A DNA stretch of 64,000 nucleotides from Allocoleopsis franciscana PCC 7113. Lineage in GTDB: Bacteria > Cyanobacteriota > Cyanobacteriia > Cyanobacteriales > Coleofasciculaceae. Location: assembly GCF_000317515.1 (NCBI RefSeq), contig NC_019738.1, positions 1,339,501-1,403,500 on the forward strand. The letters run 5' to 3'. The position numbers and the translations under genes are program-made. The notes beneath the pieces were generated by a model. It worked only from the letters and a program-made list of their open reading frames with translations. It was not told the DNA's origin and made no database searches. How positions within the stretch are numbered: position 1 is the stretch's first letter; every line of letters begins with the position of its first letter. Below, in pieces: positions 54,135 to 58,801 of this stretch.

Positions 54135-55220
54135 ATGGAAAAACAGAATAACTCTGACTGGACGTATGTTAGTTATGAAAAAATATCGGAAAATTTGAAT
54201 AAATGGAATCTTACAGAATCCGATTATCGAATATTCAAAAAAATAGATTGGGTCGTAACTGAAAAAATTCATGGTGCTAACTTTGGTATAGTCACCGATG
54301 GTTTAGAGGTTCGTTTTGCCAAACGGAAGGAATTTTTACAACCAGAGGAGGATTTTTTTGATTATCAATCCTTGAAACCTCAATTAGTTGAGCAAGCTAA
54401 GGAAATATTTAAGATTTTGCAGGCAGATTGGGATGACTTATTAAAAGTTTTTGTATACGGTGAATTGTTTGGGGGTGAGTATCCCCATCCAGACATTCCT
54501 GCTGTGCCTCATATCCAAGCGGTGCAAACAGGTATTTATTATTCTCCAAAAATAAAATACTGTGCCTTTGATATGGCGGTTGAAATGAAAGGTAATCTGG
54601 TAGCACGAGATTACCTAGATTATGACAAAGCATTAAACCTATTCCAGCAAGTTGGTCTAATGGGCACTAAACCGTTATTCATCGGTAGATATGAGGAAGC
54701 GCTGGCATATAACCCTGAATTCGATTCTACCATCCCGGCTTTATTGGGCTTGCCAAAATTACCCTTTAAAAATCATGCAGAAGGGATTGTCATTAAACCA
54801 CTCAAGTCAATTTATGTAGAGACTCATAAGGGGAAAATTAGACCTATTTTGAAGATAAAGATTCCTGATTTTTCAGAGGATAGCCGATTTCATCAGGCAA
54901 CCAAATGGACTTATCAAAAAGCTACAACTCTTCAAGCTCCAACTCAAGGGTTGAGTATTGAGGAGGAGTTGAGCCAGGAAATGCTGGCACTGGTGACGGA
55001 AAGACGATTAATAAATGTTATTTCTAAAATTGGTAGAGTGTCGCGGAGTGATTGGGATAAGAAACAGGAAGTTGCTCAATTATTGATGCAGGATGTTTTA
55101 GAAACGTTTAACGAAGAGTGGGAAAGCATTTTCAGCGGTTTATCGGGTGAGAACCAGCAAATTTTGATGGAACAGTTACATCAGAAATCGCAGAAATTGG
55201 TTGAGGTTTACTTCAATTAG
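54135..55220 (+). CDS. Rnl2-type RNA ligase
   Basis: The protein has the nucleotidyltransferase motifs of T4 Rnl2/RNA editing ligases: motif I VVTEKIHGANFGI with the AMP-accepting Lys 44, RFAKRKEFL (motif Ia), VYGELFGG (motif III), AFDMAVEM region (IIIa), AEGIVIKPL (motif IV) and LKIKIPDF (motif V). Rnl2 enzymes seal nicks in RNA held in a duplex, through a protein-AMP intermediate. The C-terminal 90 residues form a helical domain as in Rnl2. Length 361 aa. A role in RNA repair is likely, but no RNA kinase or phosphatase gene is beside it. The following three genes are on the same strand after a 307-bp gap. Confidence 0.88.
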   Translation: MEKQNNSDWTYVSYEKISENLNKWNLTESDYRIFKKIDWVVTEKIHGANFGIVTDGLEVRFAKRKEFLQPEEDFFDYQSLKPQLVEQAKEIFKILQADWDDLLKVFVYGELFGGEYPHPDIPAVPHIQAVQTGIYYSPKIKYCAFDMAVEMKGNLVARDYLDYDKALNLFQQVGLMGTKPLFIGRYEEALAYNPEFDSTIPALLGLPKLPFKNHAEGIVIKPLKSIYVETHKGKIRPILKIKIPDFSEDSRFHQATKWTYQKATTLQAPTQGLSIEEELSQEMLALVTERRLINVISKIGRVSRSDWDKKQEVAQLLMQDVLETFNEEWESIFSGLSGENQQILMEQLHQKSQKLVEVYFN

Positions 55221-55527: not shown

Positions 55528-56874
55528 TTGAGTGATTTTACGGAGGAAAAAAGCTGCGAACTAGAGAAAAATTTTAACAAGACCTTTAAGAATAGCTCAA
55601 ATAAAATGGCTGTTAGTACTGATGATCAGGATCGGGAAGGTATACCCACCGACTCGATAAGGAAGGATGAACAGGATTGTATAGGCGGAATCACGGTATC
55701 GTCTCAGCTACAGGAGAACACTAATCAGCAACAATCTGCTGACAAGCAAGGCACTGATGTTGAACCAATATCTCAGCCACAAGAAACTAACGCCAAAGCT
55801 ACCTATGCCGAGAAAACAAATCGAATCCAAGCCTGGGTTCAATTTATCAAAGCAGTAGCCCCTTTTATCTGGGGAATAGTGATTCTAGTTGTGATTATTC
55901 CCCTTGTTGGTCAACTATTTATCGCCAAAGCCTTTTCAACTAAAAGTATTATTGCAGAGACTAAGCACCCTATAGAAGTCGTTGAACAGCGTCAAGTTGA
56001 CTGGAGCAAAGTTAATGAAGCCATGAAACTGACGCTTGATCATGCCTATAACAGTGCTGAGGATTATGCCTCTCAAGAACTCGATGTCTGGGTTGATGAA
56101 TTAATGGGTAGAGTTGATAGTAGCTTTTTAGATTGGTATTTCGGCTACTTCAATCAGAAGCAGATTGAGTATAAGAGCCTTTTTGTTCAACTCTCATCAG
56201 GTGCGAGTCGTTTACTAAATCCAAATAATCCAACCCCAGCCGAAAAAGTTGCTGAAGTTATTACTGAAGATTTTCAGAAAGAATTTGCTAAACGGGTACT
56301 CATACCGCAAACGTCCCAACTCAGACTAGAACGCATAACCCAACAAACTGTTAAGCACTACCTTGATGACTTGAAGGGGAACATCAACAGTATTCCACTA
56401 CGTTACAACCTACCCCAAGCAGACTGGGAGCGCTATCTCAATGAGATTGCTATCACTATTAATGATACTGAAGGTAAAATCTCGAATCTTTCTTTGAAGG
56501 TATTAGCTGGTGGTGGTAGCTATTTAGCGCTAAAGCCTTTAGTTGCGCCACTTGTTGTAAAAGTTGGTAGTAAGGTGGTTACTAAACTGGCTAGTAAGGC
56601 TGGTGCAAAAGTTGCTACAAAGACGGGTGCAGTTCTTGCTAGTAAGTTAGGTGCAGCGGTTTTAGATTGTACGGTTGGCGTAGGTATCATTCTTTGGGAT
56701 GTCTGGGACACTAATCACACAGCTCATGTGGAAAAGCCAATTTTGCGCGATAATCTTGCTGCTTACTTGCAAGAAGTGAAATATTCCCTTCTCAACAACC
56801 GTGAGAACGGAATTATGACCGTAATTGACCAAATCCAAAGCAAGATTGTGCCAAATCTTAATAAGTTGATGTAG
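55528..56874 (+). CDS. unknown membrane protein, paralogue 1 of a three-gene cluster
   Basis: The 448-aa protein has a polar, disordered N-terminus, a membrane helix at about residues 113-137 (FIWGIVILVVIIPLVGQLFI), a helical domain with QELDVWVDELMGRVDSSFL and WYFGYFNQKQ, and then a Gly/Ala/Lys-rich segment (VGSKVVTKLASKAGAKVATK) before VGIILWDVWDTNH and EVKYSLLNN. The last three features recur in the next gene, so the two are paralogues. The start is uncertain (TTG at 55528; ATG at 55606 would also keep the helix). GxxxA-like spacing suggests a helix that packs in a membrane. I recognise no family. Confidence 0.8.
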   Translation: MSDFTEEKSCELEKNFNKTFKNSSNKMAVSTDDQDREGIPTDSIRKDEQDCIGGITVSSQLQENTNQQQSADKQGTDVEPISQPQETNAKATYAEKTNRIQAWVQFIKAVAPFIWGIVILVVIIPLVGQLFIAKAFSTKSIIAETKHPIEVVEQRQVDWSKVNEAMKLTLDHAYNSAEDYASQELDVWVDELMGRVDSSFLDWYFGYFNQKQIEYKSLFVQLSSGASRLLNPNNPTPAEKVAEVITEDFQKEFAKRVLIPQTSQLRLERITQQTVKHYLDDLKGNINSIPLRYNLPQADWERYLNEIAITINDTEGKISNLSLKVLAGGGSYLALKPLVAPLVVKVGSKVVTKLASKAGAKVATKTGAVLASKLGAAVLDCTVGVGIILWDVWDTNHTAHVEKPILRDNLAAYLQEVKYSLLNNRENGIMTVIDQIQSKIVPNLNKLM

Positions 56875-56885
56875 TCAATGAATTG

Positions 56886-56917
56886 ATGGGGAGATAGCCG
56901 ACTAACACTCTCCCCAT
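56886..56917. repeat. intercistronic hairpin in the three-gene cluster
   Basis: ATGGGGAG and CTCCCCAT enclose 16 nt. It lies between the first and second genes. No T-run follows, so it is more likely an RNA-stability or processing element than a terminator. Confidence 0.5.
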
Positions 56918-56957
56918 TCCCTTCTCGTTCATCAAATTAGGAACAAGGAAAATAGCA

Positions 56958-58013
56958 ATGTTTCAGCGTCGCTTATTTAAGCTGTTTGTCTGTCTAACTC
57001 TTAGTCTTCTCTTAAGCTTAACTGGAATAGTTCCAGCTCTTGGAAAAATTTATCCAGCTTATGCCGTTGATGTACTAAAAACGCCTAGAGGAAATGTAAC
57101 TGCTTTCGCGAGTCCTAATGAATCAACCGATTGGTATCAAATTGACAAAGTGCTGATAGATGCAGTCAGAAGAGTACATGATAGCACGGAAGAGTTTGCG
57201 GCTTATGAATTAGATAATTGGGTCAATGATTTAATGATTAAGGTAGATGATAAATTTCTAAATTGGTACTTCAGCTATTTTAATCAGAAAGCGATGGAAT
57301 TTGGCGTTCCTTTTGCTTGGCTGGCTTTTAACGTAGACTTTCTGAACTTATTCAAGAAAGAAGACGAAACACATATAAATGCAAATCAAATCTTACAAAA
57401 AAGAATGGTTAATGATTTGCAAAATAAATTTACTGAACTCGTATTAAGCCCAGAAGAAGCGCAAACATCTTTATCGAGACTAACAGAAAGGGTTGCCCGT
57501 AATTATGCTTTAGGGCTAGGTATGCAGTTAGCTACAATCAAAAACTCCTACAAAATTCCAGATAGAGAGTGGGAAAGATATTTAAATACTCTTGCCAGCC
57601 TAGTCTATGACACTGGGGCTAGTAACTATAGTTTGTCACCAGAAAGTATAACAAGTAATCTAGCAACTAAATCAATAATTGTTGCTACAGCAGGCATAGG
57701 TGGTAAATTAGCTCTAAATTTTGCTGCTAAAGGGGCTGCCAAAATAGCTGCGAAAGCTGGAGGTGCAATAGCGACTAAGGTGGCTGCTCAACTTATAGAT
57801 CCCGTTTTAGCTGTAGGAATTTTGATTTGGGATACCTGGGATTACAACAACATGGTGAATGCATCTCGACCCGTACTCCGTCAAAATATTCTGGAACACT
57901 TAAATGAAGTAAAGCTATCAATTCTTGATTCACCTGAGAATAGTATCATGGCATCCATTGAGGATGTGGAACGCAAAATAATCACTGCATTGGAATCTAG
58001 CCCAAGCTCTTAA
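56958..58013 (+). CDS. unknown exported protein, paralogue 2 of a three-gene cluster
   Basis: A 351-aa protein with a signal peptide or membrane anchor (LFKLFVCLTLSLLLSLTGIV, then PALGK). The rest follows the first gene block by block: AYELDNWVNDLMIKVDDKFL, NWYFSYFNQKAMEFG, a Gly/Ala/Lys segment (AAKGAAKIAAKAGGAIATK), VGILIWDTWDYNN, RPVLRQNILEHLNEVKLS and ENSIMASIEDVERKI. The Ala/Gly/Lys stretch could be an amphipathic or membrane-inserting helix. No enzyme motif is visible. The gene begins 83 bp after the first and shares its strand. No known family recognised. Confidence 0.82.
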   Translation: MFQRRLFKLFVCLTLSLLLSLTGIVPALGKIYPAYAVDVLKTPRGNVTAFASPNESTDWYQIDKVLIDAVRRVHDSTEEFAAYELDNWVNDLMIKVDDKFLNWYFSYFNQKAMEFGVPFAWLAFNVDFLNLFKKEDETHINANQILQKRMVNDLQNKFTELVLSPEEAQTSLSRLTERVARNYALGLGMQLATIKNSYKIPDREWERYLNTLASLVYDTGASNYSLSPESITSNLATKSIIVATAGIGGKLALNFAAKGAAKIAAKAGGAIATKVAAQLIDPVLAVGILIWDTWDYNNMVNASRPVLRQNILEHLNEVKLSILDSPENSIMASIEDVERKIITALESSPSS

Positions 58014-58078
58014 ATCCAATGTGTAATTTCCCAGAATAGGAATAACAGTACTATTGAACTAAGAAAGAATCTTCAAAA

Positions 58079-58801
58079 ATGTCTAAAGTTGACCAAGTAA
58101 TGGAAGAGATTATGTCTAAAGCTAAGCAGGTAATTAAATGGATTAATGACTGGGCTAATCTGATTGGGCTTATCATCGCTGTGATTGCGCTGATTTATAC
58201 TATCCTTCCCTTTTACAATGACTCAGGGAAGGTGTCAAATTTAGATAGCTCAGTTAAAGTTACAAACTTTCAAGAAGTTAACCTCTGTAACGGCTATCTG
58301 GTTAACGATCCCTTATCTGAAGTGCTAACGACCACGAGTCTCAGCGACAAAGAAAAAGACTATCTGGAAAGCAAAATCAACTGCTATCGCGATCAAATAC
58401 AGAAGAACCACAACGATGCAGGAGCATACACGAATATAGGCGAAGCTGAGCGACGATTAGGCAATTTGGCAGCTGCTAGTAAAGCTCATCAAAAAGCCTT
58501 GGAGTTAAAACCAGACTTGCCAGAAGCGAAGATAGGACTGGCACTTATAGAGCAAGATATGGGCAACAAGATGGCTGCTAACCAAGCGATTCAAGGAGTC
58601 TTAGCTGTACATCCTAACAAGGCGATCGCTCATTTCTACCAAGGTACAATTCTTTATGCTCAAAACCAGTTGAAGGATGCAACCGTAGCGTGGCAAAAGG
58701 CGAAAGAATTAGATCCAAATCTATCTAAGCCCGTCAAAACTTGGAAATTACCTAATATAAAGCACGTACTAGGCTGGCAAAAGAACGAGCCAAGTGTTTA
58801 G
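58079..58801 (+). CDS. membrane-anchored TPR protein, third gene of the cluster
   Basis: The 240-aa protein has one membrane helix near the N-terminus (LIGLIIAVIALIYTILPFY, about residues 30-50). The outer part (from about 110) is a run of TPR units: GAYTNIGEAERRLGNLAAAS, then KAHQKALELKPDLPEAKIGL and AHFYQGTILYAQNQLKDATV. TPR domains bind other proteins, so it may hold the two paralogous proteins together. It starts 65 bp after the second gene. Two cysteines (LCNGYL and NCYRD) lie between helix and TPR. No family beyond TPR is recognised. Confidence 0.82.
   Translation: MSKVDQVMEEIMSKAKQVIKWINDWANLIGLIIAVIALIYTILPFYNDSGKVSNLDSSVKVTNFQEVNLCNGYLVNDPLSEVLTTTSLSDKEKDYLESKINCYRDQIQKNHNDAGAYTNIGEAERRLGNLAAASKAHQKALELKPDLPEAKIGLALIEQDMGNKMAANQAIQGVLAVHPNKAIAHFYQGTILYAQNQLKDATVAWQKAKELDPNLSKPVKTWKLPNIKHVLGWQKNEPSV

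What the first reader, a model, noticed from the sequence alone, without database searches (positions are those of the whole stretch)
55528..58801. Unrecognised three-gene cluster: two paralogous membrane or exported proteins and a TPR membrane protein
The first two products share, in the same order, ELD.WV..LM..VD..FL.WYF.YFNQK, a Gly/Ala/Lys-rich stretch with small-xxx-small spacing, VGI.(I/L)WD.WD and a C-terminal EVK.S.L...EN.IM helix. One has an internal membrane helix after a disordered head, the other a signal peptide. The third has one membrane helix and TPR units. The shared Gly/Ala/Lys segment resembles membrane-inserting helices of pore formers. No known family came to mind. The set could be a secreted or envelope complex, or a toxin-like system with its scaffold.
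Basis: partly seen in the sequence, partly recalled or inferred. Interest (0 to 1): 0.66.

Follow-up and report, generated by a model that had tools for sequence, protein, structure and literature searches.

The report
Dynamin-stalk-like envelope protein pair
Two neighbouring cyanobacterial genes encode a membrane-anchored and an exported copy of an undescribed helical protein that looks like the membrane-gripping arm of dynamin without its motor domain, facing out of the cytoplasm where no GTP fuel is expected.

Summary
A (55528/55606-56874) and B (56958-58013) are tandem paralogues (32% identity over 336 aa, E 3e-51). Neither reaches a Pfam, NCBIfam or PHROG cut-off. They belong to an undescribed, almost purely cyanobacterial family (107 of 391 genomes of the order). 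A has a cytosolic head, one TM helix and an outward-facing domain; B has a signal peptide. The A-B pair recurs at 10 loci, co-inherited (mirror-tree r 0.97), with B one clade. The TPR gene C occurs beside it only in the same genus, so the three-gene system is not supported; the two-gene pair is.

Predicted models of both proteins are all-helical and match dynamin-superfamily stalks best (22 of the top 23 PDB rows for A). The family profile aligns collinearly with the trunk and paddle of cyanobacterial dynamins (hhalign probability 92%, score 56.5; none of 210 shuffles reach it; SynDLP, a true dynamin, scores 42). No GTPase domain is present. Best reading: a GTPase-less dynamin-trunk-like membrane scaffold or tether, whose Gly/Ala/Lys segment is the membrane tip.

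Other branches have other conserved partners (a divergent NB-ARC gene, 10 of 10 loci; a small hydrophobic protein, 4 of 4). Function is inferred; homology is probable, not proven.

The parts
55606..56874 (+). Gene A: 422-aa membrane-anchored paralogue (the ORF can be read from TTG 55528, 448 aa)
   Evidence: start set by the same-genus orthologue
55852..55926 (+). TM helix of A; head before it cytosolic, domain after it outside (positive-inside rule)
   Evidence: more K/R on the N side in 43 of 56 A-type members, equal in 11
56077..56160 (+). A core motif 1, ELDxW...RVDxxFLDWYFGYFNQK
56515..56688 (+). A Gly/Ala/Lys-rich segment, proposed membrane tip (aligns with the hydrophobic tip region of bacterial dynamins)
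56679..56708 (+). A core motif 2, VGIILWDVWD
56958..58013 (+). Gene B: 351-aa exported paralogue
56958..57065 (+). B signal peptide, predicted cleavage after AYA (residue 36)
   Evidence: AxA-type ends in most B-clade members
57207..57290 (+). B core motif 1, ELDNW...VDDKFLNWYFSYFNQK
57651..57800 (+). B Gly/Ala/Lys-rich segment, proposed membrane tip
   Evidence: low model confidence here
57813..57842 (+). B core motif 2, VGILIWDTWD
58079..58801 (+). Gene C: TM helix plus TPR repeats; lineage-specific neighbour, not part of the conserved unit

Best explanation
A and B are the anchored and the exported member of a new cyanobacterial protein family. Its outward-facing all-helical domain is a remote relative (or close structural analogue) of the trunk and paddle of bacterial dynamin-like proteins, without the GTPase domain. 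Proposed mechanism: A is fixed in the cytoplasmic or thylakoid membrane by its TM helix, its head stays in the cytosol and its trunk-like domain projects into the periplasm or lumen. B is secreted to the same side and assembles with A through stalk-stalk contacts, as paired bacterial dynamins do. The Gly/Ala/Lys-rich segment at the tip inserts into a bilayer, so the assembly acts as a passive scaffold or tether. Shown: paralogy, conserved pairing, co-inheritance, best fold match, profile alignment above shuffled controls, absence of a recognised GTPase. Inferred: topology, hetero-assembly, membrane insertion, scaffold or tether function.
For: Tandem paralogy, E 3e-51. Pair at 10 loci with gaps of -92 to +83 bp; A/B distance matrices correlate at r 0.97, permutation p 2e-4. 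B is one clade at 100/100. Predicted models: B pLDDT 72, A pLDDT 71. VIA-align: 19 of the top 20 entries for B (MxB Z 11.6, MxA 11.1, BDLP 9.1, SynDLP 8.9, LeoA 7.8) and 22 of the top 23 for A (MxB 10.5, MxA 10.3, BDLP 8.7), then a step to Z 6.1 for unrelated entries in A. hhalign against 34 cyanobacterial dynamins outside the GTPase: probability 91.7, score 56.5, 237 collinear columns; reversed 24; block-shuffles max 54.7, none of 210 reach it. Yardstick: SynDLP stalk against the same profile 41-42; chemoreceptors 16.6 and TolC-type proteins 15.7 against the family. LeoA/LeoBC models are matched by 3 of 28 members and are the two top-scoring PADLOC families. Topology.
Against: The tool warns that helical bundles can reach Z about 13 without kinship. 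Foldseek itself gives no E below 0.05. The tip region has pLDDT under 50 in B. Both models rest on the same 28-sequence alignment. Individual dynamin clades alone give weak scores (15-34); one block-60 shuffle reached 54.7. No Pfam dynamin model matches. A DLP trunk outside the cytoplasm has no precedent known to me, and no GTP is expected there. Some branches are linked to an NB-ARC gene, which suggests signalling rather than scaffolding.
Confidence: 0.42

Rival explanations
1. Transmembrane receptor or effector of an NLR-like (STAND) immune or cell-death circuit: the outer domain senses or perforates the envelope, the cytosolic head talks to an NB-ARC ATPase, and the window's pair is a version that uses another partner.
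For: One clade of the family (100/100) has a divergently transcribed NB-ARC gene directly upstream at 10 of 10 readable loci with otherwise changing flanks; the NB-ARC match is over the Pfam cut-off. That clade has its own cytosolic head, triplicated in Arthrospira. Two pair loci sit inside DISARM operons. LeoABC dynamins are listed as defence genes in PADLOC.
Against: No NB-ARC gene beside the window's pair. Most members have neither NB-ARC nor defence neighbours, and are single genes kept vertically in genera such as Microcoleus. The DISARM position is a general cargo slot.
Confidence: 0.22
2. Alpha-helical pore former of ClyA/Ahl/Yax type: two paralogous subunits, the Gly/Ala/Lys helices inserting to form a pore.
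For: Tandem paralogous subunits with a hydrophobic small-residue segment are typical of AhlB/SmhB/YaxAB; these appear among fold matches at Z 5-7.
Against: Clearly below dynamin stalks in Z, and rmsd 10-12 A. A is permanently anchored by a TM helix. Most genomes have a single anchored copy, vertically kept, not a patchy toxin. No immunity gene.
Confidence: 0.12
3. Unrelated new helical fold that serves as a structural envelope or thylakoid protein; the dynamin resemblance is convergence of long helical bundles.
For: Z under 13 for helical proteins may mean only a common arrangement (tool note); no sequence-level hit in the PDB. Nine single-copy loci in five GTDB families lie near chlL-chlN, which fits a housekeeping role at photosynthetic membranes.
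Against: The profile alignment is collinear over about 237 columns and beats all shuffles and a true-dynamin yardstick.
Confidence: 0.24

Closest known systems
Bacterial dynamin-like protein BDLP of Nostoc punctiforme (2J68/2J69) and its cyanobacterial tandem A/B partners
   Same: Long helical trunk in the same order, hydrophobic Gly-rich tip in the corresponding place, tandem paralogue genes
   Different: No GTPase domain, TM anchor or signal peptide instead, domain outside the cytoplasm; identity about 8-14%
MxA/MxB stalk
   Same: Best structural match (Z 10-11.6, rmsd 4.4-5.1 A over about 180-207 residues)
   Different: No GTPase or bundle signalling element; eukaryotic; no sequence similarity
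LeoA/LeoBC (Eleos) dynamins
   Same: Only PADLOC models matched by more than one member when LeoA and LeoBC are taken together (best E 0.0012)
   Different: Weak match to the helical part only; no GTPase
ClyA-type alpha pore-forming toxins (AhlB, SmhB, YaxAB)
   Same: Helical, paralogous subunits, hydrophobic segment
   Different: Weaker fold match, TM anchor in A, no toxin-like distribution

Membership tests
Dynamin superfamily | GTPase (G) domain with P-loop | tested here: not met
   No dynamin or other GTPase domain in A, B or relatives. GxxxxGK[ST] occurs by pattern in only 2 of 65 members, with no domain match; not inspected further
Dynamin superfamily | Helical stalk or trunk fold | tested here: inconclusive
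   Best matches are dynamin stalks for both models, Z 7-11.6, but below the 13 that helical bundles can reach by chance; profile alignment supportive
Dynamin superfamily | Lipid-binding tip (paddle, PH domain or loop) | tested here: inconclusive
   Gly/Ala/Lys segment aligns with the hydrophobic tip region of cyanobacterial dynamins; lipid binding not testable here
ClyA-type alpha pore-forming toxins | ClyA bundle plus hydrophobic head | tested here: inconclusive
   Z 5-7, rmsd 10-12 A, behind dynamins
DISARM | Required and conserved member of the drm operon | tested here: not met
   A-B beside drmA at 2 of 21 loci examined, in a slot that elsewhere holds other genes or none; 1 of 69 drmA-bearing genomes in the sample has them adjacent
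Paralogue pair plus TPR system | Conserved TPR partner | tested here: not met
   TPR gene C beside the pair only in the window and one same-genus genome

The most novel reading that the evidence does not exclude
A dynamin trunk that lost its GTPase and was re-targeted across the membrane, giving cyanobacteria a nucleotide-independent membrane scaffold or tether in the periplasm or thylakoid lumen, made of an anchored and a secreted subunit and re-used with different partners, including NB-ARC switches, in different lineages.
Probability: 0.35. Interest if true: 0.85.

Novelty: new variant of a known kind. Interest (0 to 1): 0.58.

Why it matters
All dynamins known to me are cytosol- or matrix-side GTPases, and their helical stalks are studied as levers of that motor. 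A family that keeps a stalk-like arm with a membrane tip but has no motor, and exports it, would show that the arm alone is useful. It would also be a candidate for shaping or joining membranes on the thylakoid-lumen or periplasmic side of cyanobacteria, where few such factors are known. The strict link of one branch to an NB-ARC switch makes a test in bacterial immunity or cell death direct.

Tried and rejected
Three-gene system with TPR scaffold: rejected. DISARM component: rejected as obligate; the drmMI-drmA gap is a cargo slot holding XisH/XisI-like, TnpA-like and toxin-antitoxin-like genes elsewhere (these names are from the look of the sequences, not scanned). Phage origin: no match in phage records or IMG/VR. 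Known family: no Pfam, NCBIfam or PHROG match over cut-off, no PDB sequence match, no Foldseek match in viral models. DUF2357, SseC, BID and similar Pfam hits are single-member and weak. Sequence-level dynamin kinship: hmmsearch of the family profile against dynamins gave only E 0.09 or worse for whole proteins; only profile-profile comparison shows it. In one search three rows (L032, L033, L101) were labelled chlN-near without checking, so that group's count is not used. Literature searches found no description of a GTPase-less exported dynamin stalk, but the library is open-access only. Searches were errors.

Full report
1. Observation. The three ORFs exist as described. A's start is better placed at ATG 55606, because the same-genus orthologue is 422 aa long from that codon. 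Against that orthologue the three genes show dN/dS of 0.20, 0.25 and 0.39, so they are real, constrained genes. A promoter scan found nothing above the shuffled expectation.

2. The family. No curated family covers A or B. The own genome has just these two copies. In the same GTDB order 107 of 391 genomes have at least one member (50 of 150 genera). A sample of the phylum gave 22 of 386, only one of them outside the order. Outside cyanobacteria I found one MAG (bacterium SM23_31) and one Microvirga megaplasmid. Phage and viral collections gave none. Most genomes have one A-type gene: a head of variable length and sequence, a TM helix, then the conserved domain. In 43 of 56 A-type members the side before the TM helix has more K/R than the side after, and 11 are equal, which puts the domain outside. 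B-type proteins start with a signal peptide, most with an AxA-type end (AYA, VNA, VHA, ALA).

3. The pair is the conserved unit. A next to B is found at 10 loci from several cyanobacterial families. All B proteins form one clade (100/100) and the paired A proteins group together, with three unpaired members among them. Distances among A and among B correlate at r 0.97 (p 2e-4), so the duplicate pair is old and inherited or transferred as a unit. The TPR gene C is beside it only in the window and in genome G134 of the same genus; the other pair loci have unrelated neighbours on that side. In both same-genus genomes an RNA-ligase gene (Rnl2-like) lies upstream and the same 428-aa gene (serpin-like by sequence, not scanned) downstream.

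4. Fold. Models were made from a 28-sequence alignment: B pLDDT 72, A pLDDT 71. Both are all-helical apart from a short hairpin in A. Among PDB chains re-aligned by VIA-align, dynamin-superfamily stalks take 19 of the top 20 places for B and 22 of the top 23 for A: MxA, MxB, Drp1, dynamin 1, BDLP, SynDLP, LeoA, OPA1. The non-dynamin row is a designed helical bundle. In A's list there is a step from Z 7.0 to 6.1 after the last dynamin. ClyA-type pore formers follow at Z 5-7 with rmsd of 10-12 A. The tool warns that helical bundles can reach such Z values by chance, so I tested sequence profiles.

5. Profiles. I collected dynamin-like proteins of related genomes and compared their non-GTPase part with the family by hhalign. 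21 sequences: probability 83, score 50.6. 34 sequences: probability 91.7, score 56.5, 237 columns, family 39-328 on dynamin 85-331. Controls: reversed profiles 23-24; 210 block-shuffled profiles, maximum 54.7, means 28-31; chemoreceptors 16.6, TolC-type proteins 15.7, 13 neighbour families at most 19.4. Yardstick: the helical part of SynDLP, a proven dynamin, scores 41-42 against the same 34. Either half of the family domain alone aligns on the same diagonal. In this alignment the Gly/Ala/Lys segment and the LDPxVGVGIxxWD motif fall on the hydrophobic stretch of the dynamins that ends ...FFGPVGIALMGLGVG. In BDLP the hydrophobic trunk-tip paddle is needed for lipid binding (PMC2862293). Three of 28 members also hit LeoA or LeoBC models in PADLOC. 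Single dynamin clades give only weak scores. I therefore call kinship probable, not shown. No GTPase domain was found in any member.

6. Neighbours of other branches. (a) One clade (100/100) has a divergently transcribed NB-ARC gene immediately upstream at 10 of 10 readable loci (NB-ARC domain over cut-off); its members carry a different cytosolic head, tripled in Arthrospira. (b) A Nostocaceae clade has a 114-aa hydrophobic protein directly upstream at 4 of 4 loci. (c) Nine single-copy loci in five GTDB families lie within about 4 kb of chlL-chlN. (d) In Nostoc sp. FACHB-892 and in genome G069 the A-B pair lies directly before drmA in DISARM operons (PADLOC), but this gap holds other genes elsewhere. 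The common theme is an outward-facing helical module that is combined with different partners.

7. Mechanism. Shown: paralogy, conserved pairing, co-inheritance, best fold match, profile match above controls. Inferred: A anchored with the trunk-like domain outside; B exported to the same side; A-B assembly by stalk contacts (paired dynamins form hetero-oligomers, PMC6104087, from its abstract); tip insertion into a bilayer; passive scaffolding or tethering, since no GTP is expected there. I put about 0.6 on kinship or close structural analogy to dynamin trunks and 0.42 on the full explanation.

8. Source of the window. It is a chromosome of 7.47 Mb in an 8-Mb genome. One genome of the same GTDB family, G249, shares a contig of identical length (5170) with a Symploca record listed as Coleofasciculaceae, so the window belongs to that family; the species is not established here.

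Noticed in passing
L039 6572-9138; L213-L232 upstream of drmA: In cyanobacterial DISARM operons the gap between drmMI and drmA is a variable cargo slot: XisH/XisI-like, transposase-like, toxin-antitoxin-like, other genes or the A-B pair.
   Followed up: partly
L087, L089, L090, L091, L092, L233, L235, L236, L241, L242: A divergent gene pair, family member and NB-ARC STAND gene, is conserved at 10 of 10 readable loci in several cyanobacterial families: a candidate two-gene NLR-like system.
   Followed up: partly
L084 6412-6756; L085 6578-6922; L086 6550-6894; L239: A 114-aa protein with Gly-rich hydrophobic helices lies directly upstream of the family gene in a Nostocaceae clade; no known family.
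   Followed up: partly
L092 7113-9263 (Arthrospira): The cytosolic head of the family protein is present three times in tandem, nearly identical copies.
   Followed up: no
window 54135-55220: T4 Rnl2-like RNA ligase gene just upstream of A, also upstream in the same-genus genome G134.
   Followed up: no
L054, L067, L070, L074, L075, L077, L083, L247, L251: Single-copy members lie near chlL-DUF-chlN in five GTDB families, perhaps ancestral synteny.
   Followed up: partly
L074 7521-8576 and 9082-10287: Genome G292 has two anchored copies side by side near chlN, a second duplication independent of the A-B pair.
   Followed up: no
L005 7857-8927: A lone, very divergent member on a Microvirga ossetica megaplasmid (22% identity), unannotated there: probable transfer out of cyanobacteria.
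   Followed up: no
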